A stretch of DNA of 64,000 bases from Microbacterium sp. (GTDB taxonomy: Bacteria; Actinomycetota; Actinomycetes; Actinomycetales; Microbacteriaceae). Under the pieces are notes generated by a model that made no database searches, was not told where the DNA came from, and worked only from the letters and a program-made list of their open reading frames with translations. Positions 26,247 through 50,788 of this stretch are shown piece by piece. The position numbers and the translations under genes were made by a program. Position 1 is the stretch's first letter; each line of letters opens with the position of its first letter. Location: positions 310,001 to 374,000 of the forward strand of contig NZ_JAFKIP010000006.1 of NCBI RefSeq assembly GCF_017305435.1. Direction: 5' to 3'.

Positions 26247-26251
26247 GATGC
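26247..26251. repeat. Left target-site duplication GATGC
   Basis: The five bases GATGC directly precede the TGTCG terminus at 26252 and are repeated directly after the other terminus at 37345-37349. A five-base duplication is the known product of Tn5053/Tn7-type transposition. Confidence 0.93.
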
Positions 26252-26352
26252 TGTCGGATCTCACGAGAGTTGTTCGGTCGCGGCTGTCCGACCAGGGCTT
26301 TTCTCGACCGAACTATCGCACCGGCAATCCGATCGGTCTCACGACAGATGTC
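26252..26352 (+). repeat. Left end of the transposon with transposase-binding-type repeats
   Basis: The terminal repeat is at 26252-26279. A second copy of the unit is at 26337-26352, TCTCACGACAGATGTC, matching the right-end unit TCTCACTCCAGTTGTC at 13 of 16 positions. A weaker copy (9 of 16) starts at 26302. The rest of 26353-26528 shows no gene, promoter or repeat that I can support. Confidence 0.8.
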
Positions 26353-26528
26353 TCGAATCCAAATCGAACGGACTACATGGGGATGGGCCCCCATCGCCCC
26401 GGGCGATCCGTTGCCAGCAAGAATGAATCGCGATCACTTGATCGATGCCCTGCGCCGCTCGTAGCCCTATCCCGTCGCCCGAGCGGTTGACCTGGATCAC
26501 TCCGCGCACATTCTCTCCAGGAAGCTCG

Positions 26529-26951
26529 TCAGCGACGCGTGTCACCACCGTGTTCGCTCCACGTGCATGTAACTGACTCGCGTGCGCCGCTGGTCGCGCT
26601 CAGATTCACCGCACAGTCAGCGTCTGAGAGCGAGCCCCACCGTCCATCGGGGAGCGGGATCCCCGACACCTGCTCGTTATCCGTTTGTGCGGGCGCTGCC
26701 GGGTCGAACCCTCCCTCGCCGTACGCGTGCCCGGTGAACCCGGCCACGACTCCGATGACGACCACCGCGACCGGCCAGCCCCAGCGCCGTGAGGCACGCG
26801 TTCGCGGCACGTCTTCAATCTGGTCGATTCCGCGCCCGTCTTGCGGGAAGGTCTGGAGTCCTCGCAGCTGATACAACTCGACTTGCGTCAGCGGTTCCTG
26901 ATCGGGGCCGTATGCGCGTTGCAGAAGGTTCGCGAGCTCGTCCGTCACCAC
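26529..26951 (-). CDS. Cargo: hypothetical single-pass membrane protein
   Basis: A 140-residue protein with a soluble N-terminal 55 residues, one transmembrane helix (about 58-76, WPVAVVVIGVVAGFTGHAY) and an exported C-terminal part with two Cys (CAVNLS and VTCTWS) that may pair. No family is recognised. TAGAGT (minus strand, 26964-26959) ends seven bases before the GTG start, so the transcript is probably leaderless. It is divergent from the EEP-family gene and is the leftmost gene of the transposon. Confidence 0.6.
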   Translation of the reverse strand: MVTDELANLLQRAYGPDQEPLTQVELYQLRGLQTFPQDGRGIDQIEDVPRTRASRRWGWPVAVVVIGVVAGFTGHAYGEGGFDPAAPAQTDNEQVSGIPLPDGRWGSLSDADCAVNLSATSGARESVTCTWSEHGGDTRR

Positions 26952-26990
26952 GGGTTTGACTCTAGCTTCAGGAACGGTTGACTGAGGTTG

Positions 26991-27995
26991 ATGCCGACTC
27001 GACGTTCCCGCAGAATCCCGCTCTTCGCGACGCTACTCGCGGGTGCGCCTGTCGGGGTACTTATCGCGTGGCCGCAAGCATTCGGCGCAGAATTGACTCC
27101 GATCATCGCTCAGCTTCTTGCGTTCCGCGGACTGGTCGCAATCGTCCTCCTTGTTCTCGCCGGCGGCGCCGCAGTTGTCGCCGTGCTCCGGCGGCGCTGG
27201 GGTGTTGCCGCCGGAGTCGCCATCATCCTCGGTGCTACATCCCTCACAAGCGGCGCCATTCTCTCCTCGCGCGGTGCCGGTGAGGCCGTGCCTGACGGTG
27301 ATCTTGTGGTTGTTTCGTGGAACACTCTCGGCGGTGCGGTATCGCCTGAGAGCATCGCGGAGCTCATTGTCGAGACCGATGCCGACATCGTCACGCTGCC
27401 GGAGACGGACGCCGTTGCCGCGGCAGAGACTGCGCGGATCGTTTCGCTGTCGGGCCGTGAAATGTGGGCCGATACCGCGTACGGCGAAGCGGGTGACTCG
27501 TGGATCCCGACGTCCGTGCTCATCGCAGCCGATCTCGGCGAGTACCGCGTTGACGAGGCAGCCGGTTCGACGCCCGGGTTGCCGAGTGGGGTCTGGCGCC
27601 CCGTCAATGGGATCAGGCCGACGATTGTCGCCGCACACCCGCTGCCGCCGTTGTTGGAAGACATGGCTGGCTGGCGGGCGGGGTTGGAGTGGGTCGCCAC
27701 CCAATGCGGCGAGCCCGACGTGATCGTGGCCGGGGACTTGAACGCGACGATCGATCACCTGTCGGCATTCGGTCGCGGAGAGTCGCTGATGGGGGATTGC
27801 CGAGACGCGGCGAGCGAGTCGGGTTCTGCGGCAGCAGGCAGTTGGCCGACGTCACTGCCGGTGTGGCTCGCGTCGCCGATCGACCATGTACTGGTCGGGT
27901 CTGCGTGGGCTGTGCACGAGGTCACCGTGGACAGCTCGTTCGATGACAGAGGCAGCGACCACCGGCCCATCATCGCCCACCTGAGGCGGAACTGA
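26991..27995 (+). CDS. Cargo: membrane-anchored endonuclease/exonuclease/phosphatase family protein
   Basis: A 334-residue protein. Three hydrophobic helices cover about residues 8-100. The outer domain is of the EEP (DNase I-like) fold: LVVVSWNTLGG (metal-binding Asn), ADIVTLPETDAV (metal-binding Glu), VIVAGDLNATIDH (catalytic Asp and Asn) and DDRGSDHRPIIAHL (Asp-His pair). The catalytic residues are intact. Family members hydrolyse nucleic acids, inositol phosphates or sphingolipids. Placement outside the membrane suggests an extracellular substrate. Base composition is less GC-rich than the host backbone. Confidence 0.85.
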   Translation: MPTRRSRRIPLFATLLAGAPVGVLIAWPQAFGAELTPIIAQLLAFRGLVAIVLLVLAGGAAVVAVLRRRWGVAAGVAIILGATSLTSGAILSSRGAGEAVPDGDLVVVSWNTLGGAVSPESIAELIVETDADIVTLPETDAVAAAETARIVSLSGREMWADTAYGEAGDSWIPTSVLIAADLGEYRVDEAAGSTPGLPSGVWRPVNGIRPTIVAAHPLPPLLEDMAGWRAGLEWVATQCGEPDVIVAGDLNATIDHLSAFGRGESLMGDCRDAASESGSAAAGSWPTSLPVWLASPIDHVLVGSAWAVHEVTVDSSFDDRGSDHRPIIAHLRRN

Positions 27996-28051
27996 GCCAA
28001 CTCATGCGCGACGGCCTTGTCTAGGCTGGTCCTCGGGAATGGAGTGATCCG

Positions 28052-28645
28052 ATGAAGCGGATGATGACGATGTTCGTCGGGGCGATCGTGATCGCCGGAA
28101 CGCTTGTCCTGTCCGGGTGCGGCGCGTCGTTCCCGGACGCTCCGGATTCTGCCGACGCGTCGTTCCCGGACGCTCCGGATTCTGTCGGCGAGGAGTACCC
28201 CACCAGCGGTGTCCCTGTCAGCGTGGCGTGGCCGTCAGATTGGTTGGAGGGATTCTTCGGGGAGGCGAACTCTCCTCCTGGCCCTCTTGTCGGGCTGCGG
28301 CTGGAGTATGTCGACGACCAGTGGGTCTGGCGGGTACGGAGTCTCGATCCCGGTCGTGACGAGTGGGGCGAGTCCGTCACCGAACCCGACCGAGGCCAGG
28401 AGGCGCTCTACGATGCCAGCACCCTCGCCGTGAAGCAGAAACGCCACGTGACGCTCACGGAGGCCGAACTGGCTGACCTCGGGGTCAGTGCGTACGCCGC
28501 CGCCCAACTGTCCGGCGAGGTCTACCCCAGTCCGCGCCTCATCGAGTTGGCGCTGATCATGCAGGACGGGCGGCCGGCGTGGCGGATAACGACCTACGAC
28601 ACCGAGACCGGTCTGCAGTCAGAAGTGACAGTGGACGCGAACTGA
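28052..28645 (+). CDS. Cargo: lipoprotein with internal 33-bp tandem duplication
   Basis: A 197-residue lipoprotein. The signal peptide ends LVLSGCGA, lipidated at about Cys 23. Just after it the 11-residue unit ASFPDAPDS plus two residues occurs twice, encoded by 28124-28156 and 28157-28189 with two differences. The mature part has a repeated pattern (LVGLRLEYVDDQWVWRVRS and LIMQDGRPAWRITTYDTETG) like PepSY or other small beta folds. TAGGCT at about 28021-28026 and GGAGTGA before the ATG suggest its promoter and ribosome-binding site. Confidence 0.7.
   Translation: MKRMMTMFVGAIVIAGTLVLSGCGASFPDAPDSADASFPDAPDSVGEEYPTSGVPVSVAWPSDWLEGFFGEANSPPGPLVGLRLEYVDDQWVWRVRSLDPGRDEWGESVTEPDRGQEALYDASTLAVKQKRHVTLTEAELADLGVSAYAAAQLSGEVYPSPRLIELALIMQDGRPAWRITTYDTETGLQSEVTVDAN
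28124..28189 (+). repeat. 33-bp tandem direct repeat within a lipoprotein gene
   Basis: Two adjacent 33-base units, 28124-28156 and 28157-28189, differ at two bases and keep the reading frame, giving two copies of an ASFPDAPDS unit in the linker after the lipobox. Confidence 0.93.
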
Positions 28646-28653
28646 CCGCCCCG

Positions 28654-29208
28654 TCACCGCTGAGGCGGGATCACGAAGCCCTCGGGTAGAGCATTATTGT
28701 GAACGATGCCGTTCTGGTCGCCCACGCTGAAGATGGTGTGCGCGTCGAGGTTGAGGGTGTCACCGGAGTACAGTGTGTCGCCATCACGGCGGACGTAATT
28801 CACCCAGTAGAGCCACTGCTCCCCGACGCAGAATCGCGCGCCGATTGTTGAGATGACATCATTGTCGGCCACCTTGTAGGCGACCGGAACGCCATTTACA
28901 TCGAGAACGGGTTGTCCCGTCGCGTGCGGCATGGAACCCCGATCAAAGGGAACCGCTAACGTCACTCCGCCGAGCTGTTCCACCTCGGTGTCGTCGGCGA
29001 TGGGATAGGCGGGCGTGGCCGCCTCACAGGGACCAGGATCGCTCACCGGTTCAGCTTCTGGCGTGACCGTCGCAGTCGGCGTCGGCACTGATGAAACAGG
29101 TGGGCTACTGCGCGTCGGCTGAGCGTCCGGGAGCGCCGGCGCTGCGGTGCACCCTGCGAGCAGGACAGCGAGACCTACGGTGACGCCGAGCAATCCTCTC
29201 CTGTTCAC
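28654..29208 (-). CDS. Cargo: lipoprotein with LysM-like C-terminal domain
   Basis: A 184-residue lipoprotein: signal peptide ending VLLAGCTA, a Pro/Thr/Ser-rich linker of about 40 residues, and a C-terminal part in which VAYKVADNDVISTIGARFCVG, YWVNYVRR and YSGDTLNLDAHT follow the order of a LysM domain (peptidoglycan-binding). GTG 29208 is chosen because TTGAGT ends six bases before it; a TTG at 29220 would add four residues. It is convergent with the upstream lipoprotein gene, eight bases away. Confidence 0.7.
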   Translation of the reverse strand: MNRRGLLGVTVGLAVLLAGCTAAPALPDAQPTRSSPPVSSVPTPTATVTPEAEPVSDPGPCEAATPAYPIADDTEVEQLGGVTLAVPFDRGSMPHATGQPVLDVNGVPVAYKVADNDVISTIGARFCVGEQWLYWVNYVRRDGDTLYSGDTLNLDAHTIFSVGDQNGIVHNNALPEGFVIPPQR

Positions 29209-29322
29209 CGTCGAACTCAATCTGGGGCACCCGCTGTCAGAAGTCGAGCTGCCGCGGACGCGCGACCCTCGGAGCTTTGCGCGTCCGGTGCGTGAGTCCC
29301 GGTCGCTGATCGTGCCCTGACG

Positions 29323-29922
29323 TCATCCCTGACCCGGTGCACCGTACCCCCCGCCGTCCGGCAACACGGGGCACGATGCCTCGGCGGTCTGCGCTGCGAC
29401 CTCGGCGCGCACCGCGACGCCGTCTGTCGTCTTCTCCACGGTGTAAACGACTCCCTCCTGCGCGCCCTCTGCCGGAATGTACCCCACGATGGCCGATTGA
29501 ATGGCGGGATCATCGGGGACCGCCCCCACTGAAGTCGAGATGAGATCGGCGGTCGGATTATCCCTAAGCCAGTTCGCGGTCGCGCTCACGGTTGCGTCAG
29601 GGATCGACCAGAACCCCTCCAACTTCGCTACGGGACCACAGGGCCACCCCGTATACGAGCTGAACGTTGCGACACTCGCGTCGGCGGGAATCGCGCCCGG
29701 CGGGAGTGCTGCGGCATCGAGCCATGCGTGCGCTTGTGCCTGCGCCTCCGGGTCTGTGCTCCCCGGCGTAGCGATCGCCGACGAGTCGCTCGCCTCGGAG
29801 GACTGCGCAGGCAGTGGCTCACCCGCAGGATCGGCGCCGCCTGCCACCATCGCGGGCGTCGCGCACCCGGTCAGAGCGAGCGCGAGCACGGAACTGAGTA
29901 TGAAAGCCGAGCGGTGCCGCAT
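29323..29922 (-). CDS. Cargo: hypothetical lipoprotein
   Basis: A 199-residue lipoprotein whose signal peptide ends LALTGCATP. A low-complexity linker rich in S, A, P and T follows, then a folded part of about 130 residues (VATFSSYTGWPCGPVAKLEGFW, GYIPAEGAQEGVVYTVEKTTDG). No family is recognised. ATG 29922 is set by TACGGT six bases upstream. The cell-surface location is inferred from the lipobox. Confidence 0.65.
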   Translation of the reverse strand: MRHRSAFILSSVLALALTGCATPAMVAGGADPAGEPLPAQSSEASDSSAIATPGSTDPEAQAQAHAWLDAAALPPGAIPADASVATFSSYTGWPCGPVAKLEGFWSIPDATVSATANWLRDNPTADLISTSVGAVPDDPAIQSAIVGYIPAEGAQEGVVYTVEKTTDGVAVRAEVAAQTAEASCPVLPDGGGYGAPGQG

Positions 29923-30032
29923 GCATCCACCGTAGTCGGCGGATGCCGTCGCGATCACTTGTCACTTATGCGCGCGACGGACGTGGACGATGGTGCGGCG
30001 GAGCCCCAGGTTGCTCCTCTTAGGCTTGCCAC

Positions 30033-31118
30033 GTGTCTACTGCACCCGTGTCGACCGAGAGCGATGATGAATCGCCCACTCCTTCACGGAGCTGGCGTCG
30101 GATTGCCCTGCTTCTCGCTGGCGCCATCCTGTTCTGCTCGACAACCGTTCTTGTGACACTGCTCATTGTCTCCACAGCATCGGACGGTGCGACCTCCGTG
30201 TTGATCGGCACGGTTGACTCGGAGTTGCTCTCTGGTCTCGCGCTCATCGCGGCCCTGGCAGCCCTGGCGACGGGACTGTGCGTCATCCCCGTGCCCAGGC
30301 TTTGGCTCATCCTGATGATCCCGGCGCGCGCGGTAGCCATCGCGGCCACCGCACTGGCAGGGATCGTGTGTTTCCTCACCTCGTCCTCGACGGTTGTTCC
30401 GCTCGTCGCCAACGGCTGCGAAACCGGGTATGTGGTCAAAGAGAAGTCGTTCCTTCTTGCGGGTTGGGGCACGATCTATCGACAGGATGGCGTACTTGTC
30501 ACGGCCGTCGAGCGAACCCTCAGCGATGATGGCTACCACCCCTTCGCGGACGGCGCCTATACGGTGGCGGAGGACGGCGCGTCACTCCGGGTCTGGCGGA
30601 ACTTCAGCTTTGACTACTCGGCTGCGCCGGTGACGACCGACCGCGACCCGGACTTCACCCTTCCGAAGCTCACCGACCGTACGCTCGCATGTGGTGTCAG
30701 CACCGGAGCACGAACACCGATTCCCTCAGCGCCCGCCGCGCCCACATACGGCGCGGACGAGGCCCGAGCAGGGCTCGAGAATATGGTCGCGGCGTCGCTG
30801 GACGCAGCCGTCGGGCCGGTGCACGATTCCGCTGGACAGCTCCTCGACGCCGACGAGATGTCACCGGCATCGACCGCGTGCGGTGAGAACGGCACACGAA
30901 TCGGACTCGGGCTCACGTTCGAGACCGCGGACAATGGCGCCACGCTCGCGCGAATCCTCAAGGTTTGGGATGCCGCAGGATACGCCGCGGATCGGGCAAT
31001 GCAGGAAGACATCCGCTACAGCGACGCGCTGCCGGTGGAGAAGATGAGTATCCGCGACTCGACGAGTATCGACGGACTGATCCACATGCAGGTCACGTCG
31101 CAGTGCAGCGCGCGCTGA
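30033..31118 (+). CDS. Cargo: hypothetical membrane protein with large exported domain
   Basis: A 361-residue protein. Three hydrophobic helices lie at about residues 24-46, 62-82 and 90-115. The exported remainder has two Cys pairs (VANGCETGYV, LACGVST, STACGENGT, TSQCSAR) and no recognised family. TAGGCT ends six bases before the GTG start at 30033. It is the last cargo gene, convergent with the tniQ genes. Confidence 0.6.
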   Translation: MSTAPVSTESDDESPTPSRSWRRIALLLAGAILFCSTTVLVTLLIVSTASDGATSVLIGTVDSELLSGLALIAALAALATGLCVIPVPRLWLILMIPARAVAIAATALAGIVCFLTSSSTVVPLVANGCETGYVVKEKSFLLAGWGTIYRQDGVLVTAVERTLSDDGYHPFADGAYTVAEDGASLRVWRNFSFDYSAAPVTTDRDPDFTLPKLTDRTLACGVSTGARTPIPSAPAAPTYGADEARAGLENMVAASLDAAVGPVHDSAGQLLDADEMSPASTACGENGTRIGLGLTFETADNGATLARILKVWDAAGYAADRAMQEDIRYSDALPVEKMSIRDSTSIDGLIHMQVTSQCSAR

Positions 31119-31283
31119 TCCGCCCTGCCTGCCGCAATCTCTCGAATACGTCGGCCGTGTATAACACCGCGCGCGGCCCGAGCACCCGATTCCCGAATCG
31201 TTCTGACGCGTCCCCGGCAAGCCTTCGCGCGAGTGGTCGACGGCGCCGTGGAACTCTGTGCGAGTACTCACGAGGACCGCAGG
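31119..31283. other. Cargo-tniQ junction, no gene seen
   Basis: A 165-base gap between the convergent cargo gene and the second tniQ. I see no hairpin, promoter or repeat of the transposon-end type here. Confidence 0.4.
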
Positions 31284-32342
31284 TTAGGACATAGCCAACT
31301 CGTCGGAACGGGGTGGCCAGTTGCGGATGACCCGGCTGCGCGGTGCGGCTTGACCTGTCTTCCCCGCGATGTGGGGAAGAATCCTTGGGTTGGCGTGGCG
31401 GAGGAGGCAGGCGCGCTGCCGGTGCGCTGCAGCAATGAGGGCGCGGTTGAGTGGGCACCGCTGATACTTGACCTGCTTCGAACTGCGCAGTCCGTACATG
31501 TACAACATCGCCCGGTGGGCCTGCCCGACGACGCTGACGGTGAAGGTGCGCAATGCGTCGTTGGGTTCGTCACCGATCGCCTTCGCGACGGCAGGTAGCA
31601 GGCGATCGGCCTGAGCGAGCGCGGAAGTCGTCACGTCCAGGATCGGAGTGATCGTGCGCGGCGATGTGAGCACGCAGGTCAAACGAATGATCTCGGGGTA
31701 CGCGCACAGCAGCACGTTTTCGTAGGTGTCGAGGTGCGGGATGCCGAAACTCGCCATGCGGTCGCCGATCGGGGACGAATCATCTGAGCCTTCGTGCCAG
31801 GCTTCGACGAAAGCTGCGGCGAGGTTTACTTCGCCGGTGTGGAGGGCGACGCCGCGCTTCCAGAGTTGTGATCGCAGCAGCAGTTCCGCACTCTCGTAGC
31901 CGGGCATGCCTGCTATGTCGGCGTGCAACGCGCGGTACGCCCAATGGTGATGCGCGAGGCAGAGCGCACCGCCGCGGGCGATCGTCGTGGTGGCCAGCCC
32001 GCCGGAGCATTCCGGGCATGCAATACGGGGTTCGGCGAACCGGGCACACCTGGCGCATTTCTCAGGACGCCAGCTGCGGTGGCCGCATCTGACCCACATG
32101 CCATCTTTCTCGAAGTTGGGGCGTAGCGCGTCGCGCGGCAGATCTGCGAGATGCTCGATGAGATCGACGACACGCTGATCCGCCGCGGGCCACCAGTTGC
32201 GACCGAGGTGCTCCAAGACGATTCGACGGATATCGCGTTCCTCGCACTGGTGAGCTTGGGCGAGCCGCTTCGTGAACCCTTCGACGGTCTCACCCTCGAT
32301 GAGTTCGAGTCGAATCGGTAGCGTGCGGAACGGAAGGCTCAC
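31284..32342 (-). CDS. tniQ: TniQ family target-selection protein, distal copy
   Basis: A 352-residue TniQ/TnsD-family protein. The N-terminus LPIRLELIEGETVEGFTKRLAQAHQ matches the TniQ opening. Cys/His clusters follow: CGHRSWRPEKCARC and CPECSGG, then CLAHHHWAY. TniQ proteins recognise the insertion target and recruit the transposase with the ATPase. It overlaps the first tniQ by four bases. It differs throughout from its neighbour, so this is not a recent duplication. Confidence 0.88.
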   Translation of the reverse strand: MSLPFRTLPIRLELIEGETVEGFTKRLAQAHQCEERDIRRIVLEHLGRNWWPAADQRVVDLIEHLADLPRDALRPNFEKDGMWVRCGHRSWRPEKCARCARFAEPRIACPECSGGLATTTIARGGALCLAHHHWAYRALHADIAGMPGYESAELLLRSQLWKRGVALHTGEVNLAAAFVEAWHEGSDDSSPIGDRMASFGIPHLDTYENVLLCAYPEIIRLTCVLTSPRTITPILDVTTSALAQADRLLPAVAKAIGDEPNDALRTFTVSVVGQAHRAMLYMYGLRSSKQVKYQRCPLNRALIAAAHRQRACLLRHANPRILPHIAGKTGQAAPRSRVIRNWPPRSDELAMS

Positions 32343-33289
32343 ACGCGGTCATGCCTCGATGAGCCGCGCGGTCGACGCGTGGGAGGCTTGCGGGCGTCGG
32401 TGTGGCGCAGGAGTGTGGCTCGGACCCGCGGGGCGAACGCCAGAATTCTCCTACCGAGTTCATCGAGGCCCGCGGACCGGCCGTACCGAAGCCGCACGGG
32501 TCGGTCGAGGCCGATGACCGCTTCGCGGCCTTCGATGTGAAAAGACGCGCGGACAGCGGCGACGTCGTGCGACGTGCCCGCGGTCACCGCGTTCACCGCT
32601 GCTTCGACGAGCGCGGCGACCTGGATGGGGCCGACGTTCGTGTTCGTGAGGAACCGCTCCGCCCACGGCTCTGTTGTCAGCGCGACGAGACGCACCGCTT
32701 CGGGATAGTGGCGCGCAAGCGCCGTTCGATGAGATACGCCCTCTTGTTCGAGATCGGTGGCGCGAAGAAGGGTCGTGGCGAGTTCCAGTTCGCCGGTGTC
32801 GGGGCCGATGCCGCGTTCCCAGAGCGTGCCTGTGAGGCATCGTTCGGCGCGAAAGAAGTCGGCGTTTCGCGCGAGGTCGCGGTCCGCTCCCGCGTAGTGC
32901 CACCTGCGGTGTCGCGCACACACCGCTCCGATCCGGGTGCGCACCTCGACGGGTTCACCGCCGGTGCATCGCCTGCATTTCGTGACGGCAGACGGCAGGG
33001 GCGCGCACATCGGGCAGTTGTTGTGTCGCCAGTCGGCGTGAATGCAGCGGACGAACAGGCGGTCAGAGCGGCTACCGTCGAAGTACCCGGGAGGGAGGTC
33101 GGCGAGTTGTTCGACCAGTCGCGGCACGAGTTCTGGTGTCGTGCGCAGAGGCAGCCGCGGGCGCTCGTGACGGAGGGTCGTCCACAGTTCCCCGGCCGGC
33201 ACGGCGTTGCGGGTGGTAAGTCTGCGGTAGACGCTGCTGACGGTTTCTCCCGTGAAGGGTTCGATGAGCACGGGGAGCTTCCTCATCAT
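32339..33289 (-). CDS. tniQ: TniQ family target-selection protein, proximal copy
   Basis: A 316-residue TniQ-family protein. It opens LPVLIEPFTGETVSSVYRRL and has zinc-type clusters CIHADWRHNNCPMC and KCRRCTGG, then CARHRRWHY. The second half is helical and variable. It overlaps tniB and the other tniQ by four bases each, so all five transposition genes are translationally linked. Having two different TniQ proteins suggests two kinds of target, as in some Tn7-like elements; that is inference. Confidence 0.88.
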   Translation of the reverse strand: MMRKLPVLIEPFTGETVSSVYRRLTTRNAVPAGELWTTLRHERPRLPLRTTPELVPRLVEQLADLPPGYFDGSRSDRLFVRCIHADWRHNNCPMCAPLPSAVTKCRRCTGGEPVEVRTRIGAVCARHRRWHYAGADRDLARNADFFRAERCLTGTLWERGIGPDTGELELATTLLRATDLEQEGVSHRTALARHYPEAVRLVALTTEPWAERFLTNTNVGPIQVAALVEAAVNAVTAGTSHDVAAVRASFHIEGREAVIGLDRPVRLRYGRSAGLDELGRRILAFAPRVRATLLRHTDARKPPTRRPRGSSRHDRV

Positions 33290-34386
33290 TTCGCTCGCGC
33301 GGGACGGCCTCGTTTGGGCCGTGGTGATGGCCGGTTCTCTTCTTCCTCGATCCAGCCTTCCGACTCACGGATTTTCGCCAGCGACGCGAGCACGTCGTCG
33401 AGGTCGAGGCGTTCAGTGTGCTGTTCGATGGCGCGGCGCGCTCCGCGGCGGACGGCTCGGGCGACGCGGCCGATGGAGCCGCGGGATAGGTCGCGGAGTT
33501 CAGCAGCGACGGTGAGGATCTCCGCGTCAGGTTGCGAGATCAAGCACAGTGAGTCTTCGAGGTCGACGAGGATGCGCCCCCACACCGCGGCGTCAGCGGT
33601 CTCGCCAGTCCCGTAGGTGTCGAACTTGACCAGCTCGAATCGGGCCATGATCTGTTCGCCGCGCGAGCCCCAGAACAGGCCGTTGCGGGCGACATCGACA
33701 CCGGCGTAGACCATCGTGCCGGGACACCTCTCGGACAGTTCTTTGAGCGCGTCGGCGACTTGCTCGTTGCCGCGGTAGTGCAGGTCCAGCCGGTGGATGT
33801 CGTCGATGATCACGAGTTCGGTGCGGCATTCGCGCATCACATGGCTCACGCGGCTGAGGAGGACTTCGTAGTTCGCGTTGCGGGAGTACGGGATGGCGTA
33901 GAAGTCGGCGAGCTTGGTGATCATGGTCTTCGCCGTCGCGTGCGTCGGCACGGGCACGTATGCGACGGGGGTCAAGTTGCGTTGCGAGGCCGTGGCGCGC
34001 TGGCGTCGGGCTCGCTCGAACGCCCTGCCGAACTCCTGGACCGCGGTGGTCTTCCCGAGACCTGGCCTGCCAGAGATGATCACGCCGGACTTGCTGGCGT
34101 CTGGGGAGCGGTTGTCGGTTATCGCGTGGCGGATGGCGACCGCGACCCGTCGGAGTGATGGGGTCGCCACCCGGGCGCCGAGGGTCATGTACCGTTCGCG
34201 GGCGATGTTGAACAGCGCTCGCTCCGAGGAGTCCATCGCGTCGTACTCGGCGAGCGTGAGCGGGAGTGTCCGTTGGGCGACGAACTCGACAAACTCGCGC
34301 CACCCTTCCTTTGTGGCGTAGTCGAAGTCGGTCGATGGGGCGTCGAAGTCGAAGTCCCCCAGCAGATCATCGAACATCGCGCTCAC
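33286..34386 (-). CDS. tniB: TniB-like AAA+ ATPase of the transposon
   Basis: A 366-residue AAA+ ATPase. Walker A GRPGLGKT covers residues 106-113 and Walker B LVIIDDIHRL residues 191-200. A C-terminal lid region (LSRGSIGRVARAVRRGARRAI) and a basic tail follow. TniB/TnsC proteins form filaments on target DNA and link the target selector to the transposase. It overlaps tniA and the first tniQ by four bases. Confidence 0.92.
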   Translation of the reverse strand: MSAMFDDLLGDFDFDAPSTDFDYATKEGWREFVEFVAQRTLPLTLAEYDAMDSSERALFNIARERYMTLGARVATPSLRRVAVAIRHAITDNRSPDASKSGVIISGRPGLGKTTAVQEFGRAFERARRQRATASQRNLTPVAYVPVPTHATAKTMITKLADFYAIPYSRNANYEVLLSRVSHVMRECRTELVIIDDIHRLDLHYRGNEQVADALKELSERCPGTMVYAGVDVARNGLFWGSRGEQIMARFELVKFDTYGTGETADAAVWGRILVDLEDSLCLISQPDAEILTVAAELRDLSRGSIGRVARAVRRGARRAIEQHTERLDLDDVLASLAKIRESEGWIEEEENRPSPRPKRGRPARAK

Positions 34387-36401
34387 GCCTCATCCGGCGA
34401 CCGGGTCATCCCGAACGGTGCGGCGACCGGCCATGCTGGCTTCGCCGCGACAACATGGAGTTCTTTGTCGCCGAGGTCCCCAGTTGCCGAATGCTCGGCG
34501 CCCGGCGGTGCTGTGGGTGCGATGTGTGGGAGTTGGTTGGTGATCGCCAGCGGGTCCGTCCGTGCGCTTACAGCACGCTTCTTCTGACGCGCCGTCGGCA
34601 GCGCGTTGCCCTTGTACATGAACCGGCGCATCACCTCGTTGAGGTCGTCGGTGCTCGGCTCGTTGTCGCCGCGGGCTGCGGCTTGCGCGCGGGCGACTCG
34701 CCAGACCTCGTCGGCCATCGGGGCGCCGCTGTACGGGGAGCGCCAGTCGAGCGGGAGGAACTGGTCGCCGAGTTCCAGCCACACCGTCATCGGGTTGTAG
34801 GGGTCGACGTGGAATGGCCACTTGCCTTGTTGCCGGTGGTGCGGTGACCGCTTTTTCCGCAGCGGGCCGAGCTCGGTGGAGTCGTAGACGCGCAGGTCGA
34901 TGTCGACACCGTAGTGGTTGATCACACGCCATTCGGTCGGGAGCAGTGCGATGTACTTCTCGGCGGTGAGCGGGACTTGCAGCTCCGGAGCGACTTCGCG
35001 GTACGCGGCGACCATCTGGTTCGGGGCCAGCATGAGCCGAGGGTTGCGGGGGTCGCGCAGCGCCTTGTGGGGTCGGTTCTGCCAGGTCACCGCGACCCAG
35101 TCCTCGAACAGCTCCTGCAGCTGCTCGAGGGTGAGCAGCTGGCTCGTCGCGATCACCTCGTCTCCACGCATGTCGGGGCTCTGCCCGAGGAACGCGATCG
35201 CGTACTGGGTGAACTGGTCCTTCACGGTGCGGAACATCCGCTCGATTTTCGCCTTCTGCGTCGGCGTGTACTCCGCGTTGACCGTCAGCGAGATCCCCAG
35301 CGTCCGACAGGCATCCGAGAAGTGCCGCGACACGTACGACGCGCCACGGTCGGTCGTGATCGACTCCGGGAAGATGTACGGTTGCGCGTCGCGCATTACC
35401 TCGAACCGCTCCACCATGAGCCCGTCCGTGCCGGTCCACGCCTCCGAGACCTGACGCCGGTTCGCGCGAACTCCGTCGGGACGGGCCGAGTACGGCACCA
35501 GAGCACGGGCGAGGACCACCACGAGGTCGATGCTGCGAGAACCGACGGTGACAATGCCCGCGAGCACCGAGCGTGATGCCTCACACAGCAACAGGGTGAG
35601 ATCGGGGCGGATCGGTTCGCCATCGCATTCGACGAGGATCTCCATCGGGGTCGTGTCGATCAGCACCTGCTCACCGGGTCGCACGCCGGTACGTAATCCG
35701 TGCATGTGATCCGGCTGATTGGCTGTGGTGCGACGTGCGCGGGCGCTGCCCAACGTGTGCTTGCCGGCATCGAGTTCATTCAGCAGCCGGTACATCGTCG
35801 CCCGGCTCGGCATCGGCACGACACCCTCGCCGAAGCGGTCGTCCAGCTCCCTGCGGACGAGCCAGATCAATCGCGTCCCGGTGCCGGTCGACTTCCGCTC
35901 CTGCCCAGCCTGGACGGTCAGAATCGCGTCGATCAGGCGCTCGTCGTAGGAGCGCCCGGGCATGTCGGCGAGGCCGTGGCGACGTCGATCGAGAAGACCG
36001 CTGACCCCGAACTCTTCGAGGGCGCGTTGCTGACGCGAGACCTTGACCGGGCCGTAGCCGGTTCCGAGACGACGGTTGACGTCGTCGATAACTTGCTGCC
36101 GCGCCGCGGGCTTGGTCACGCCTGCCGCCACGAGCTTGTCGAACCGGGCGAGTTCCTCCAGCCACACGTCGACGATCTTGCGATCGCGCGCGTCGAGATC
36201 CTGCAGGCTGCGCAGGTCCAGCAGTGACCGCAGGGATGCGGGAGCGGCAGGTTCCGCTTGGTGCCGCAGGTCCGCGGCGAGCACCTCCACGTCGTCTCCA
36301 TCCCCGTCGACGGCGCGCAGGGTCAGGTAGGTGGGCCGGATCGCAACGACCTGGTGACTTCCGCCCTGCCACCGGATGATGTCGCCAGGATGAACGCTCA
36401 T
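34383..36401 (-). CDS. tniA: TniA/TnsB-type DDE transposase
   Basis: A 672-residue Mu-type transposase. The N-terminal part contains helix-turn-helix regions. The integrase core has Asp249 in VLIDTTPME, Asp351 in TTDRGASYV and Glu387 in KAKIERMF. The 35 residues between the last two give the classic DD(35)E spacing. A beta-barrel region with PYNPMTVWLELGDQFLPL follows and the C-terminus would contact TniB. All catalytic residues are intact and no frameshift was seen, so the enzyme should be active. Confidence 0.95.
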   Translation of the reverse strand: MSVHPGDIIRWQGGSHQVVAIRPTYLTLRAVDGDGDDVEVLAADLRHQAEPAAPASLRSLLDLRSLQDLDARDRKIVDVWLEELARFDKLVAAGVTKPAARQQVIDDVNRRLGTGYGPVKVSRQQRALEEFGVSGLLDRRRHGLADMPGRSYDERLIDAILTVQAGQERKSTGTGTRLIWLVRRELDDRFGEGVVPMPSRATMYRLLNELDAGKHTLGSARARRTTANQPDHMHGLRTGVRPGEQVLIDTTPMEILVECDGEPIRPDLTLLLCEASRSVLAGIVTVGSRSIDLVVVLARALVPYSARPDGVRANRRQVSEAWTGTDGLMVERFEVMRDAQPYIFPESITTDRGASYVSRHFSDACRTLGISLTVNAEYTPTQKAKIERMFRTVKDQFTQYAIAFLGQSPDMRGDEVIATSQLLTLEQLQELFEDWVAVTWQNRPHKALRDPRNPRLMLAPNQMVAAYREVAPELQVPLTAEKYIALLPTEWRVINHYGVDIDLRVYDSTELGPLRKKRSPHHRQQGKWPFHVDPYNPMTVWLELGDQFLPLDWRSPYSGAPMADEVWRVARAQAAARGDNEPSTDDLNEVMRRFMYKGNALPTARQKKRAVSARTDPLAITNQLPHIAPTAPPGAEHSATGDLGDKELHVVAAKPAWPVAAPFGMTRSPDEA

Positions 36402-37141
36402 GACCCGCCCTCCAGATCGACAACGGTCGCCATCGACAAGGGACGGTGTAGATCCGCCTGCGCCACCCCGCTCCACACGAGTGCATACGCGGCGCCGACA
36501 CCTGAGCGAGCAACGCCACCGAGGGCCGCCGCGAGCGAGCCCAGACTCATCCGACCGGTGAGCCCGAGCGCGGCGATGTCGACGCCCTCCAGCCACGCAG
36601 GCTCGCGGTACCGAAGCAGGAAGCGCAGATTCGCCTGGGTGGCGCCGGGAAGCTGATCGAAGACGAGATAGGACCACCCCAGTGCGGCAGCAAGGCGACG
36701 AGTGAGTTCGAACTTCATGCTGTCCTCGGGCTTGATCAGTTCGACCGGCCTCACGTCGACGAGCAGCGCACTCCCATCGGAGCGGCGCACGAAATAGTCG
36801 GGCGCGTGGGAGCGCTTCGGTGACCGCCAGCGGATCCACATCGGCTGGCTCGCCACCCCGACGACATCCCCCGTCCGGTCCAGCGAGGTCAGGAACGAGC
36901 GCTCCCAGAACGACTCGAACGGAATGTGCCGGCCCGTCGAGGCCATCCACAGCTTGCCCTCGAAGTTGCGCTTGCCCGGCCACGACGGGAACTCGCGAAC
37001 CGGATCCGCATCCTCGAACATCACGCGCGCCGCGTCGACGGGGTCTGCGTGCTGGAGGAGGCCGTGTCTGGAAAACTCGATCGTGGCCGCGAGTGCGTTC
37101 GTCCCGTCGATCGCGGCGAGCCAGTCTTGGGTCAAGGTCAC
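36398..37141 (-). CDS. TnsA-like heteromeric transposase endonuclease subunit
   Basis: A 247-residue restriction-fold nuclease. Candidate catalytic residues are Glu76/Glu80 (FESFWERSF), Asp115 (HAPDYFVRR) and Asp129 with Arg131 (ALLVDVRP), where classic TnsA has a Lys. TnsA cuts the 5' ends of the element so that it moves by cut-and-paste rather than replication. The GTG start at 37141 has GGGAGAG upstream. It is the first gene of the operon and lies 200 bases from the right end. Confidence 0.88.
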   Translation of the reverse strand: MTLTQDWLAAIDGTNALAATIEFSRHGLLQHADPVDAARVMFEDADPVREFPSWPGKRNFEGKLWMASTGRHIPFESFWERSFLTSLDRTGDVVGVASQPMWIRWRSPKRSHAPDYFVRRSDGSALLVDVRPVELIKPEDSMKFELTRRLAAALGWSYLVFDQLPGATQANLRFLLRYREPAWLEGVDIAALGLTGRMSLGSLAAALGGVARSGVGAAYALVWSGVAQADLHRPLSMATVVDLEGGS

Positions 37142-37260
37142 GGAGAACTCTCCCTTCCGGAGAATCCCGCACCCGATCAGAGCGCTCCGGTGGAACCTCC
37201 CGGCTTGAACCGCAAGCTACTCCCGCCTCGGAGCAGCGCTACGCGGCGCGCCGCTCTCCC

Positions 37261-37344
37261 GACAACTGGAGTGAGAATCCGACAACTGGAGTGAGACGAC
37301 TGGACAGGTCCGTGAGAATCGGACAACTGGAGTGAGACACGACA
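37261..37344 (-). repeat. Right end of the transposon with repeated binding-site units
   Basis: GACAACTGGAGTGAGA occurs three times exactly, at 37261-37276, 37281-37296 and 37322-37337, with a degenerate copy near 37303-37317. The element ends at 37344 with CGACA. The terminal 28 bases match the left end at 20 of 28 positions in inverted orientation. Confidence 0.93.
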
Positions 37345-37349
37345 GATGC
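37345..37349. repeat. Right target-site duplication GATGC
   Basis: GATGC follows the CGACA terminus directly and is identical to 26247-26251. Confidence 0.93.
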
Positions 37350-37381
37350 GCCAAGAATCACAAAAAGATAACGGCGAAGCC

Positions 37382-37409
37382 TTGTGGACCGTTACCTGGC
37401 CGTTATAGA
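37382..37409 (+). promoter_or_regulatory. Candidate host promoter next to the transposon
   Basis: TTGTGG (37382-37387) and TTATAG/TATAGA (37404-37409) are 16 bases apart, a fair sigma-70-type promoter. An inverted repeat ATAACGGC / GCCGTTAT covers the same stretch and could be an operator. The start of transcription would be near 37416. Confidence 0.5.
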
Positions 37410-37415
37410 GTGCTC

Positions 37416-37524
37416 GCACGGTAGTTGTTTTGCTGTGGCAGCTACCGACATGTGATTGCAGGACACTCTTGGTGCAAGGGACAAGGGCCGGTCGGAAGCC
37501 TCTCCGACCGGCCCTCACCTTTTT
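37416..37524 (+). ncRNA. Possible small RNA of about 110 nt
   Basis: A promoter-like pair upstream, a small hairpin CGGTAG / CTACCG near 37419-37450, no convincing reading frame and a strong terminator at 37485-37524 together look like a short non-coding transcript. I do not recognise a known RNA family. Expression is not shown by sequence. Confidence 0.35.
37485..37524 (+). terminator. Intrinsic terminator with T tract
   Basis: GGGCCGGTCGGA (37485-37496) pairs perfectly over 12 bases with 37503-37514 around a six-base loop, and TTTTT follows at 37520-37524. A T tract is unusual in this genome, which makes the call firm. Confidence 0.88.
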
Positions 37525-37537
37525 CTGGATCTCGATA

Positions 37538-37607
37538 CACCGCGGCGGAGCCGCGGCACTCGATCACCCATGAGCACACCGCGGCGGAGCCACGGCACTC
37601 GATCACC
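37538..37607. repeat. Two 31-bp direct repeats with internal palindrome
   Basis: The unit beginning CACCGCGGCGGAGCC and ending CACTCGATCACC occurs at 37538-37568 and 37577-37607 with one mismatch, separated by eight bases. Each unit contains CCGCGGC-GGA-GCCGCGG or a near copy. The first is preceded by CTCGATA, the pattern of common actinobacterial intergenic REP-like repeats. Confidence 0.8.
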
Positions 37608-40409: not shown

Positions 40410-43400
40410 TCAGTCGGAGGGGGATCGGCGCCGTCGCAGCAGGAGGAGCCACCAGACGATCGCGGCCAGGACGGCAACGGGGATCAGCCACAGCAGCAAC
40501 GCGGGCGCGGGCGCGGGCGGTGGATCGTCGGACGCATGACGCGGTGACGCGGCATCCGGCGTGTCCGCGGACGTGAGCGGGGTCGCGTAAGGCGACGGTG
40601 ATGGGACTGCGGCGCTGGGCGCGAGCGCAGATCCCCCGCCGGGGCCGGATTCGGACCCCGTCACGCCGCGAGCGCGCGGTCCCGAGTCCGCGTCGCCCTC
40701 ACCCGAGCCCGCCTCCACCGACGCGGTCGGCGCGGGGTCGGTTGAGGACGGCGAAGTCTGCTCCGCCACGGCGTGCACCGTGACGGTCGCCGATGCCGTG
40801 CCCGTCGATCCGGCCTGGGCGGCGATGTACTGGAACGTCCCCTCCCCGGCGGTCGCGGCGGTCACGTGCAGCGCCCCCGCCTCATCCAGGAACGCCGCGC
40901 CGCCCGTGTAGCCGGTGACCGCGACCAGTCGCAGCGCGCTGTCACCTGTCGCCGCGTCGTTGTCGAGCAGGGCGGCGGCGGAGAGCACCGACTCCGTACC
41001 CACGATCACCTCGAGCCGGTCGTCGACGACCGTCGGGCGGCGGGGCGCGTCGATTCGTAGCTCGATCGTCGTCCACGACTCCGCCCCCGCCACCCGCACC
41101 CGGATGCGCGCTGGGCCGGTGGCCTGGGCGGTCGCGGCATCCGCGCTCACCCGCAGGGTGCCCGCCGAGACGATCAGCCCCGTCACGGAGTCGATCGGCT
41201 CCAGGACCGCGACCGCGCCCCCGCCCGCGGGCTGATCCACGACGGGATCGACCTCGAAACGCGCGGGCACGTCGTGGGCCGTGTGCAGCGCGATCACCCG
41301 TGTCTCGCCCGGCGTGAGAGTGACCGTGCTCGGCGCGATGGCGCCGGCATCCGGAACCGTCGCGTCGCTCCCCGATCCGGGGGCCGCGTCCGTCGTCGCG
41401 ACGACGGACGGTTCGGATGCCGCGGGCGGTTCGCTCGGAACCGGCGCCTCGGCGGGGTCGACGACGAGCGCGGGAAGGTCGACGGACCCGCCGCCTCCGT
41501 CGCCACCGCCGGGGAGACCGCCGCCGTTCCAGGCGAAGTCGGTGTAGCAGGTGGACGTGCCCGGCACGTAGTCCGGGATCGTGGTGGCGATGGTCGTCGC
41601 ACCGAAGTACAGACCGCAGTCCGCGTCGCCGTAGACGCCGCCCCCCGGAATGCTCTTCGCCGCGCGGTGGCCCGACCATCCGGACGGAACCGCGAGAGTG
41701 CCGACCTCCGTCGTCACGGCGGGGGTGAGCGGGTCGTCATCGCGCTCAGGCGGCGTCAACGTCGACAGGTCGGCCCGCAGCTGGCGGTTCTCCTCGGTGA
41801 CGAGCAGTTCGTGGTCGCTCGTCCAGCTCACTCCGAGGATCGGGGTGCGGTCGATCATCGTCACGAAGCGCAGGGAGTCGACCAGATGCGTCGAGCCGGA
41901 GGCGCCGGGGAACGTCGGACTCTGCCACCTCACGGGCGCGACCACGACGCCGTAACCCCCGCCGATCCGTTCGACACGCGCGACATAGCGGCCGTCGGGC
42001 GAGAGTTCGGGGCATCCGACCGCTTCCATGTTCCCGGCACCCTGGATATCGCCGGGGCTCGGCTCGTCATAGGCGAAGAGGCCGTGGTAGGCCTGCATGG
42101 GAACGTCGGGTGAGCCCTTCAGCGCCAGCGCGTCACCGAACTTCTGGCCGGAGACCCCGAAGACGGTGAAGTTCTCCAACCAGAGGAAGTCACCGTAGCG
42201 GTTCGACGAGCTGAGCGACAGGCAGGGTCGAGGTGTCGTGGCCCGGTCGTAACCGATGTCGTCGGCGTTGCCGCCGTTGCTGAACTCGGAGCGCAGTCCG
42301 CTCCCGTCGGGCAGCACCGACTGTAGCAGCCCGCCCTTCTCGAGGAAGTAGATCCGCCCGTCGGGCGCCCACACGGGCGAGGTGTACAGCGCCGGGCGCT
42401 TCCAGGCCTGAGGCGTGCTCTGGTTCGGCGCCACGTCGATCATCGTCGGCGCGTCGAAGAAGGTTCGAGCGGAACCGTCGGGCGACATCGTGCCGACGCG
42501 GTCCCAGGTCGGGAACGTGCCCAGATTGCTGGGGTCGGTCGGATGCTCCACGTCGCGGTCGCCCGCCACGAACGCCACCCACGGCTGTGGATCGAGATCG
42601 CCGAGCGGCCGACCCCAGTTCACGTCGTGCACGCACGAAGAGGCACCAGCGACGTCCTCGGCCCCGAGCACCGTGGCCCCGAGATACCAGCCGCATCCGG
42701 AATCGCCGTAGACGCGACCGTCGAGGGTGGGCTTGGCGGCCCGCTGCCGCGCCGTGCTCGACGGGAGGGAGAGGGTACCCTGCGGCGTCGCCGTCGCGGG
42801 GGTGACGGGAAGGAGGTGCCCGTCGGGGGCCCGCCGATCGGGCTGCAGAGTGCCGAGGTCGAGGGTCGAGGTCGTCGCGCTGTCCCAACCCGGCGTGCCC
42901 GCCGCGACGAGCAGGGAGTTCTCGCCCGCCCAGCTCACCGAGAGCTGGCGCACATCCGCTCCCGCCGCTCCGTCGGCCCGCCACAGGGTCTCGTCCCACG
43001 CCGACACGACGCGCGGACCGAAGGAGATGGGCCACTCCGAGACCGCGGTGCCGTCCTCGTACCAGCCGTCCTTCGCCGGCGCCACCACGACCGCCAGCGC
43101 GGATCCCGGAGTCTGCCCACCCTGGTCGTCGACCCGAAGGCCGTGATAGTCGGCGACCGCCGCCACGAGCGTGCCGTCGGGCGAGAGCGCGGGGCACTGC
43201 GTCACCGTGGCGTCGACCCGGTTGTACCCGTTGAAGGGCAGACTCGTCTCCCATCCGGACGTCGCGTCCGGCCGCCCGATCCGCGACCAGCCCGACCCCG
43301 ACCGCTCGTACACGCCGCCGTCGAAGAGGAACCGCCCGCCGTCCGCGCTCATCGACAGGCAGGCCGTCGGCTGCCCGACCTGAGCCTGGCAGTCGTCGAG

Positions 43401-47885: not shown

Positions 47886-48072
47886 GACTCGTCCTGGTCT
47901 CTGTCAGCGTGCGGGGTCGGATGCTCCCGCATGCCCTTCTCAGGTCGGCGAAGCGACGGGCATCACACCAGAAGCTACTGACGCCGACGCGCGCTGTCAG
48001 TGTCACAGCGGTGCCGACCTTGCGATCGGCTCTCGATCGATCGCCGAGTGGATGTCGGGTACTCGACGGCGC
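47886..48072. other. Intergenic region upstream of the giant gene
   Basis: A 187-base gap. I see no reading frame, terminator or convincing promoter. An AGGA lies about ten bases before the GTG start of the giant gene. Confidence 0.3.
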
Positions 48073-48366
48073 TCACCCGGATGCGGGCTTCGACGCCTTG
48101 CCCTCGAGCCACTGTGTGTCCGATGCGTCGCTGTGCGTCGTGCCGGTGCCGACGTGCTTCGCGTCGATCTTCGGGCCCTTCGTGATGACGTGCACGAGCG
48201 CCATCGCGTGACCGCGCCCGAGGCCGTAGTCCTCCGCGAGCCACGTGACGATCTCGCCGGCCTTGGTGCCCGGGCCGTAGCCGCGCGTCGTGGCCTCGTC
48301 GATGAACTGTCGCGGGGTGCGACCGGTCTTCTCCTCGATGTTGTCGAGGTACGCCTGGAACGACAT
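48073..48366 (-). CDS. DUF4287 domain-containing protein
   Basis: A 97-residue protein that begins MSFQAYLDNIEEKTGRTPRQF and continues KAGEIVTWLAEDYGLGRGHAMALVHVI, the standard DUF4287 sequence pattern. This small helical domain is widespread in actinobacteria and has no established function. TAGGCT ends seven bases before the ATG. Confidence 0.9.
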   Translation of the reverse strand: MSFQAYLDNIEEKTGRTPRQFIDEATTRGYGPGTKAGEIVTWLAEDYGLGRGHAMALVHVITKGPKIDAKHVGTGTTHSDASDTQWLEGKASKPASG

Positions 48367-48396
48367 GCGGTTCAGCCTAGGGCCGCCGCGCGCGGG

Positions 48397-49937: not shown

Positions 49938-49952
49938 CCGAACATTCTAGGA

Positions 49953-49999
49953 ATAGTTGATGCGACAACGAGGTTGACCAGGATAGTTGCCTCTACAAC
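49953..49999. promoter_or_regulatory. Paired MarR operators
   Basis: ATAGTTGATGCGACAAC (49953-49969) and ATAGTTGCCTCTACAAC (49983-49999) share the dyad GTTG-N6-CAAC and the same ATA before it. Their spacing is 30 bases, about three helical turns. They lie between the divergent MarR and reductase genes. Confidence 0.8.
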
Positions 50000-50034
50000 A
50001 GTCGAGGCATCCACGATTCTCGGAAGGAACCCTC

Positions 50035-50610: not shown

Positions 50611-50631
50611 CCGCGCGCTGATTCGTGCCTC

Positions 50632-50686
50632 CAGTTGGCGCGTACGCCGGAAACTGCGACCTGGTTTCCGGCGCACGCGCCAACTG
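50632..50686. repeat. 23-bp-arm palindrome upstream of the nuclease-fold gene
   Basis: Positions 50632-50654 pair with 50664-50686 with one mismatch in 23 bases; the loop is nine bases. The arms begin CAGTTGGCGCGT and end ACGCGCCAACTG. It lies 22 bases after the reductase stop and could terminate that transcript, but a related sequence lies beyond the next gene. Confidence 0.85.
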
Positions 50687-50788
50687 AGTGCATTCATCGA
50701 CTTCTCCACAGGTATGGGTTTCTCGCTGCTTGTGCACAGATGACTCCGCGGACGCGTATCCCGCGGGCTGACGCGACACAGTGGCGGG

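What the first reader, a model, noticed from the sequence alone, without database searches (positions are those of the whole stretch)
26247..37349. Intact Tn5053/Tn7-like transposon with exact ends and a perfect GATGC target duplication
Both termini can be read directly: TGTCG at 26252 and CGACA at 37344, with 20 of 28 terminal bases shared in inverted orientation, repeated binding-type units inside each end, and the same five bases (GATGC) flanking both. A five-base duplication is known for TniA/TnsB-type transposition. All five transposition genes are open, and the DD(35)E triad (Asp249, Asp351, Glu387) is intact, so the element may be recent and active.
Basis: partly seen in the sequence, partly recalled or inferred. 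Interest (0 to 1): 0.85.

Follow-up and report, generated by a model that had tools for sequence, protein, structure and literature searches.

The report
Tn7-like transposon homing to sRNA gene
The window holds an intact Tn7-type jumping element whose exact ends are confirmed by near-identical and related copies in other bacteria, and this element and its close relatives mostly land at one fixed spot, just upstream of the promoter of a small RNA gene that is conserved across the bacterial family and has no entry in the RNA-family library searched.

Summary
Observation confirmed. Element 26252-37344 (11,093 bp), 20/28 terminal identity, GATGC duplication. An almost identical copy (3 mismatches in 11,083 bp) in another genome carries a different duplication, CCCAG: the ends are real and the element moved recently.

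It is Tn7-like, not Tn5053: TnsA, TnsB (D249/D351/E387 invariant in 15 sequences), TnsC, two short TniQ proteins; no resolvase found.

Of 31 related TnsB loci found in 295 congeneric genomes, 27 lie at the same conserved motif, tnsA side facing it; 0 of 13 fetched loci of a neighbouring lineage do. The motif belongs to a roughly 105-nt small RNA: 288/295 genus genomes, 241/299 family genomes, strong covariation, no Rfam family above threshold. Insertion lies 40-59 bp upstream of a direct repeat over the RNA's promoter. Exceptions include plasmid-like sites, also beside a promoter with a predicted hairpin behind it.

Best reading: a new attachment site and a new sRNA family for an uncharacterised actinobacterial Tn7-like group. 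That TniQ selects the site is inferred.

The parts
26252..37344 (.). whole transposon, 11,093 bp, TGT...ACA ends
   Evidence: (same ends, other duplication in G211)
26247..26251 (+). left target duplication GATGC
37345..37349 (+). right target duplication GATGC
26252..26351 (+). left end with two TCTCACGANAGNTGT units (probable TnsB sites)
   Evidence: function inferred
37251..37344 (-). right (tnsA-side) end with three CNGACAACTGGAGTGAGA units (probable TnsB sites)
   Evidence: function inferred
36398..37141 (-). tnsA, 247 aa
   Evidence: NCBIfam NF033179 184 bits; E76, E80, D115, D129 invariant in 14 sequences, own included
34383..36401 (-). tnsB (DDE transposase), 672 aa
   Evidence: DDE residues invariant; CAST TnsB or TnsAB chains in PDB E 5.6e-18 to 6.9e-23
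33286..34386 (-). tnsC/tniB AAA+ ATPase, 366 aa
   Evidence: Pfam TniB 64.4 bits, cut-off 22.4
32339..33289 (-). tniQ-a, 316 aa
   Evidence: Pfam TniQ only 11.6 bits; aligns with TniQ-b, Cys/His positions invariant in 21 sequences; model's best Foldseek hits are TniQ but weak
31284..32342 (-). tniQ-b, 352 aa
   Evidence: Pfam TniQ 19.9 bits, E 0.0013, below cut-off 27
30033..31118 (+). cargo ORF, 361 aa, no family
29323..29958 (-). cargo ORF, 211 aa, no family
28654..29220 (-). cargo ORF, 188 aa, lipoprotein-like N-terminus
   Evidence: by eye
28052..28645 (+). cargo ORF, 197 aa, weak PepSY match (below cut-off)
26988..27995 (+). cargo: endonuclease/exonuclease/phosphatase-family protein, 335 aa
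   Evidence: Pfam PF03372 61.4 bits
26529..26951 (-). cargo ORF, 140 aa, no Pfam family
37382..37409 (+). promoter-like TTGTGG-N16-TATAGA of the sRNA, overlapping direct repeat CCGTTACC (37389) and CCGTTATA (37400), 11 bp apart
   Evidence: promoter read by eye (the strict scan found none)
37415..37520 (+). small RNA gene = attachment site (model hit 37401-37520); P1 stem 37419-37427/37439-37447, nearly invariant core from 37450, terminator 37484-37515
   Evidence: start of transcript not mapped

Best explanation
This is a complete, recently mobile Tn7-like cut-and-paste transposon of an actinobacterial lineage that homes to one chromosomal attachment site: the region just upstream of the promoter of a small RNA gene conserved through most of Microbacteriaceae. 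Shown: exact ends, duplications, gene set, predominant and oriented insertion (tnsA end facing the RNA) at a nearly fixed distance, stacking of several elements at the site, and an RNA gene left intact. Inferred: one or both TniQ proteins bind conserved DNA at the promoter (the CGTTAYC-N4-CCGTTATA direct repeat, whose first unit starts 40-59 bp from the insertion) or in the RNA gene; TnsC bridges to TnsA/TnsB, which cut the element out and join it about 50 bp away, making a 5-bp duplication. Inferred further: the same lineage uses plasmid sites to spread between cells, a two-pathway life like that of Tn7.
For: Site use: of 31 TnsB loci with at least 300 bits in 295 genus genomes (which scored at most four candidates per genome), 27 lie at the sRNA in the same orientation (G052 and G164 judged from contigs that end inside the sRNA or its promoter; three are stacked in G211); 0 of 13 fetched lower-scoring loci do. 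A generous chance rate is about 8e-4 per locus. Sites span TnsB identities from 100% down to about 33%, and other genera: Agromyces subbeticus and G570. Ends and duplications. Near-empty site: G080 against G293, GCCGC at the junction. Genomes held one per species share a 99.97% identical element while flanking genes are about 74-88% identical. RNA: 288/295 and 241/299 genomes; 15 of 25 pairs with changes on both sides, 88 such cells against 25.0 in shuffles. Spacing: in line with the about 50 bp reported for CASTs (PMC8649781, passage).
Against: No binding or transposition was measured. Both TniQ proteins are short (316 and 352 aa) without the long C-terminal part of TnsD, and match Pfam TniQ below its cut-off; Foldseek hits to TniQ have E 0.25-0.45. 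Four of 31 loci lie elsewhere: G278 (TSD TCCCT, at a tRNA-3'-like fragment), G180 (decayed), G274:C2 and G275:C95 (plasmid-like). Outside the genus, of the three strongest family-level TnsB hits (G423, G570, G474) only G570 shows the sRNA within the 1.5 kb of flank held. Elements with only a TniQ-a-like gene (G127, G260) and with only a TniQ-b-like gene (G005 and others) both sit at the sRNA, so neither TniQ clade alone explains the choice.
Confidence: 0.85

Rival explanations
1. The sRNA upstream region is a general genomic hot spot (tolerated insertions of anything), and the association reflects selection against insertions elsewhere rather than target recognition by this lineage.
For: The csbD-to-sRNA interval is variable and holds other genes in several genomes.
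Against: In the 33 rows with the sRNA core in view, the insertion lies 98-118 bp from the core, with the tnsA end facing the RNA; 13 loci of a related TnsA/B/C lineage in the same genus never use the site.
Confidence: 0.05
2. Targeting is RNA-guided: the element carries a copy or mimic of the sRNA used as guide, as CRISPR-associated transposons do with attachment-site spacers.
For: The target is an RNA gene; CASTs are known to use guides against ffs, tRNA genes and others (PMC11406308, passages).
Against: No stretch of 11 or more bases is shared between the window element and the sRNA region on either strand; the longest match (10) is at chance level (98 of 100 shuffles reach it). No Cas gene among the family hits, apart from TnsC matching a CAST-type TnsC model. 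Only the window's element was tested.
Confidence: 0.03
3. TniQ (or TnsC) recognises a protein at the promoter, such as RNA polymerase or an MtrA-type regulator on the direct repeat, rather than naked DNA.
For: The conserved DNA at 40-59 bp from the insertion is a direct repeat of 8-bp units with a 3-bp linker, as described for MtrA sites in Corynebacterium (PMC3353115, passage), and plasmid-like sites also lie 39-47 bp from a TTGACA in four of five cases; a review notes that another target complex uses acyl carrier protein (PMC11406308, passage).
Against: Promoters are everywhere, yet this one is used in 27 of 31 loci; no direct evidence for any protein bridge.
Confidence: 0.12
4. A plain Tn5053-family element with loose insertion near resolution sites.
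For: TniB- and TniQ-type genes and 5-bp duplication.
Against: Has TnsA, no resolvase found; RNA-gene site.
Confidence: 0.02

Closest known systems
Actinobacteria-dominated clade (clade 2) of Tn7-like transposons of Benler et al. 2021 (PMC8649781; passages seen)
   Same: Actinobacterial TnsB with TnsC and TniQ/TnsD; TnsB-site arrays at the ends; the paper states that none of the clade had been experimentally characterised.
   Different: I did not place this TnsB in their tree. In the passages I saw, no attachment site is named for the clade; their ncRNA annotation used Rfam (14.5), and Rfam 15 has no family that this sRNA reaches.
Tn7 (glmS) and Tn7-like elements with RNA-gene attachment sites: SRP-RNA/ffs (PMC6360697, passages) and tRNA genes (PMC11406308, PMC10293859, passages)
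   Same: Conserved gene as landmark, tnsA-side end as the right end, 5-bp duplication, plasmids as a second target.
   Different: The SRP-RNA and tRNA insertions in those passages lie downstream of the gene; here the insertion is upstream of the promoter of an sRNA without Rfam family; TniQ proteins here are short.
Tn5053 / Tn402
   Same: TniB- and TniQ-type proteins, DDE transposase, 5-bp duplication (recalled).
   Different: Tn5053 has TniR resolvase and no TnsA (recalled); here the reverse.
MtrA (OmpR-type) sites of Corynebacterium (PMC3353115, passage)
   Same: 8-bp direct repeats with a 3-bp linker near -10: the reverse complement of the window site reads ATAACGGC-CAG-GTAACGGT.
   Different: Only the first five bases of each unit fit the consensus given there; no regulator binding tested.

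Membership tests
Tn7-like transposons | TnsA + DDE TnsB + AAA+ TnsC | tested here: met
Tn7-like transposons | TGT...ACA ends with internal TnsB-type repeats and 5-bp duplication | tested here: met
Tn7-like transposons | TniQ/TnsD target selector | tested here: inconclusive
   two TniQ-type genes with invariant Cys/His positions, but Pfam TniQ below cut-off and weak fold matches; function untested
Tn7-like transposons | fixed, oriented insertion at a conserved attachment site | tested here: met
   27 of 31 loci
Tn7-like transposons | transposition activity | not testable with these tools
   only indirect: 3 mismatches in 11,083 bp between copies with two different duplications
Tn5053/Tn402 family | serine resolvase TniR | tested here: not met
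   no resolvase family among the ORFs tested
Tn5053/Tn402 family | no TnsA | tested here: not met
   TnsA present
CRISPR-associated transposon | cas genes or guide RNA | tested here: not met
   no separate search for CRISPR arrays
Benler clade 2 (Actinobacteria) | position in the TnsB tree | not tested
   their tree was not available to me
Any Rfam family (for the sRNA) | gathering score reached | tested here: not met
   best 27.6 bits against 45

The most novel reading that the evidence does not exclude
A Tn7-like clade has specialised on promoters of small RNA genes: a family-wide chromosomal sRNA for vertical safety and a plasmid-borne sRNA-like gene for spread, both recognised about 50 bp from the insertion by short TniQ proteins that read the promoter repeat (or what is bound to it) instead of a gene body. 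This would be a mode of attachment-site recognition not described in the passages of Tn7-like work that I saw.
Probability: 0.2. Interest if true: 0.8.

Novelty: new variant of a known kind. Interest (0 to 1): 0.62.

Why it matters
It gives a Tn7-like group from actinobacteria, whose dominant clade was described as experimentally uncharacterised in 2021 (PMC8649781, passage), a defined attachment site, several element types with their ends, and a near-identical pair of copies with different target duplications: what is needed to rebuild transposition and test how short TniQ proteins choose a target. It also uncovers a conserved sRNA family of Microbacteriaceae (241 of 299 genomes) that has no Rfam family and whose 30-nt core hardly varies. 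Site-specific large-cargo insertion beside a nearly universal gene could serve as a chromosomal landing system for the genus.

Tried and rejected
Exact empty join csbD|37350: searched with the left flank over 295 genomes; of the places I then inspected none has csbD directly next to the sRNA, so the boundaries rest on copies with other duplications and on G080 against G293.

RNA guide or mimic inside the window's element: none. Defence cargo: none by PADLOC. Rfam hits for the sRNA: only weak terminator-like matches. Rfam on seven alternative-site loci: nothing. ARAGORN on the joined G278 flanks found no tRNA, although the flank reads like the 3' half of one; I therefore only call it tRNA-3'-like. 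The first RNAalifold structure, used in model R1, misplaces the 5' stem; the structure, drawn from the window copy and tested on alignment A7, fits better. The PDB profile hits of TniQ to TAL effectors look like artefacts (no stretch passes on its own). Plasmid collection: 182 records with distant TnsB relatives, all under 60% identity. Only 13 of the lower-scoring TnsB loci were fetched as the control. Family level: apart from G570 and a TnsB fragment in G346, the loci scanned (1.5 kb of flank) show no sRNA. In the named set (37 loci, overlapping), 22 show the sRNA directly; L190, L192, L210, L212 and L220 are at it by stacking or contig edge; L195, L201, L203, L217, L221 and L222 are elsewhere, L200 is unresolved, and L224-L226 are weak or partial matches without the sRNA.
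Full report
WHAT IS THERE. The element runs from 26252 to 37344, 11,093 bp, begins TGTCGGATCTCACGAGAGTTG and ends AACTGGAGTGAGACACGACA; 20 of 28 terminal bases agree and GATGC flanks both sides. The right end holds three 27-nt repeat copies and the left end two 15-nt copies with a related core. Genes on the minus strand, overlapping as an operon: tnsA, tnsB, tnsC, tniQ-a, tniQ-b. TnsA belongs to NCBIfam NF033179; TnsB has D249, D351 and E387 invariant in 15 sequences and matches the TnsB chains of CRISPR-associated transposons in the PDB. Six cargo ORFs follow; one is an endonuclease/exonuclease/phosphatase-family protein, the others have no family above threshold, and none has a PADLOC match. 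Each end is found once in its genome.

THE ENDS ARE PROVEN. TnsB is 100% identical in genomes G211 and G275 of the same genus. The G211 copy differs at 3 of the 11,083 bases compared, starts at the same base, is flanked by CCCAG instead of GATGC, and carries a second transposon of 12,186 bp (duplication GAGTG) inserted 10-15 bp inside its right end (lengths add up to 23,284). A relative in G137 is 10,916 bp with duplication CGGCG; others are 14,311 bp with GTCGG (G004) and 10,333 bp with TCCCT (G278). G275 is imperfect (GATGA/ATGAG). For several other copies my script found no matching left end within the stretch held. Genes around the insertion in G211 and G275 are only about 74-88% identical to the window, so a 99.97% identical element points to recent horizontal movement.

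A SITE, NOT A RANDOM SPOT. The sequence right of the element (37363-37518) is conserved next to the tnsA end in other genomes. A 26-mer of it was then found in 20 of the first 31 TnsB loci fetched. Over the 295 genomes (at most four candidates scored per genome) I took all 31 listed TnsB loci with at least 300 bits: 27 lie at this sequence with the tnsA end facing it (G275:C153, G000, G211 x3, G238, G137, G032, G171, G259, G127, G185, G002, G115, G252, G260, G004, G065, G005, G052, G108, G172, G253, G293, G156, G164, G134; G052 and G164 judged from contigs that end inside the site; two of the three in G211 lie behind the outermost one). Four do not: G278, G180, G274:C2, G275:C95. Of the lower-scoring TnsB lineage I fetched 13 loci; none is at the site. 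The chance per locus is below 1e-3 even when generous. Beyond the genus, Agromyces subbeticus and G570 show the same; G423, G474 and Leucobacter sp. 7(1) do not within the flank held. Remnant right ends without a TnsB at that place sit at the site in G039, G126 and G079 (L059, L068, L103; by eye). G080 shows a near-empty site for the G293 element, with GCCGC where G293 has it at the junction.

THE SITE IS A SMALL RNA GENE. It has a promoter-like TTG-N-TATA element, a 5' hairpin, a nearly invariant core ATGTGATTGCAGGACACTCTTGGTGCAAGGG and a terminator. In 36 distinct sequences from Microbacteriaceae, 15 of 25 pairs change on both sides, with 88 such cells against 25.0 (sd 3.8) in shuffles and at most 19 in slid versions (the structure was drawn from the window copy; the five pairs of helix 2 never vary and say nothing). 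The window copy folds at -54.4 kcal/mol, z -5.05. The model built here finds it in 288 of 295 genus genomes, 241 of 299 family genomes and 72 of 85 genera; in the order, 18 of 149 match, of which the 10 of the same family are strong and the 8 others weak (E 7e-6 to 1e-3), most covering the terminator hairpin only. Some second 'matches' per genome are the terminator hairpin read in antisense, so copy numbers are overestimates. No Rfam family reaches threshold. My paper searches, seen as listings, showed no report of this RNA or of such an element in Microbacterium, in a library of open-licence PMC papers only.

WHAT MAY BE READ. Measured from the insertion point, the sRNA promoter holds a direct repeat CGTTAYC-N4-CCGTTATA (11-bp period; some copies depart from this consensus) whose units start at 40-59 and 51-70 bp (35 sRNA rows). 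The window's end type keeps 102-104 bp to the core; other end types spread over 7 to 13 bp (98-118 overall). Reverse-complemented, the repeat reads as 8-bp units with a 3-bp linker, the arrangement given for MtrA sites in Corynebacterium (PMC3353115, passage); MtrA sites near -10 are said there to repress. CASTs are reported to insert about 50 bp from their target (PMC8649781, passage). So the promoter repeat is the best candidate for recognition, with the RNA core (98-118 bp away) as rival. The window's element carries no copy of the RNA above chance, so a guide is unlikely.

SECOND KIND OF SITE. Five loci (L125 = G274:C2, L201, L217, L221 = G275:C95, L222) are inserted upstream of another promoter, with TTGACA 39, 45, 45 and 47 bp from the insertion in four of them; downstream comes a predicted hairpin, strong in L125, L201, L221 and L222 (0-5 of 200 mononucleotide shuffles fold as well) and weak in L217 (31 of 200). 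Neighbouring reading frames in four of them look like plasmid genes (ParA-like, small DNA-binding proteins, secretion-type peptidase; by eye). L216, at the sRNA, and L217, at a plasmid-like site, both match the query at 36% over residues 1-571. This suggests a two-pathway life, but five sites are few and 'plasmid' is inferred.

TNIQ. The TniQ tree splits into two clades. Dual-TniQ elements carry one of each; single-TniQ elements at the sRNA mostly carry the second type, yet G127 and G260 have only the first type detected. In G278 tniQ-a is interrupted near its end by a 1.6-kb insertion that encodes a transposase-like protein (by eye), and the element is not at the sRNA; suggestive, but the order of events is unknown, and G238, in which no tniQ-a was found and tnsC and tniQ-b are partial, is at the sRNA. 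The predicted TniQ-a model (mean pLDDT 81.7) has ShCAST TniQ structures as its three best matches, though with E 0.25-0.45.

VERDICT. RNA genes as Tn7-like attachment sites are known (SRP-RNA, tRNA; PMC6360697, PMC11406308, PMC10293859, passages), with insertion downstream of the gene in the passages I saw; insertion upstream of the promoter of an sRNA without Rfam family, by an element with short TniQ proteins, is a new variant.

Noticed in passing
window 37415-37520: A small RNA found in most Microbacteriaceae, without an Rfam family, with a 5' hairpin that covaries, a nearly invariant 30-nt core and a CCUCUCC terminator loop; function unknown.
   Followed up: partly
L125, L201, L217, L221, L222: Plasmid-like alternative sites: a promoter followed by a hairpin whose paired bases differ between the five loci (by eye) and no obvious ORF right behind it, possibly a plasmid small RNA.
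   Followed up: partly
G211:C33 (L033/L034), L192 with L211, L220/L142: In three assemblies a second element type is inserted into the right terminus of a window-type element or its remnant at the same site; G211 has a stack of three transposons.
   Followed up: partly
window 37543-37564 and 37582-37603: Two nearly identical 22-bp repeats just behind the sRNA terminator, none elsewhere in the window with up to 2 mismatches.
   Followed up: no
window 40410-51880: A 2,491-aa ORF and its surroundings lie between the MarR gene and a stretch (51.9-53.4 kb) that is close to MarR and the sRNA in G211 and lies in the same fetched stretches of G171 and G278, so this segment looks variable.
   Followed up: no
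G000:C7:601230-602729: A second, distant TnsB (31% identity) with its own TnsA and TnsC in the same genome, of the lineage that does not use the sRNA site.
   Followed up: no
window 37389-37407: The sRNA promoter carries a direct repeat of the MtrA-site layout overlapping -35/-10.
   Followed up: partly
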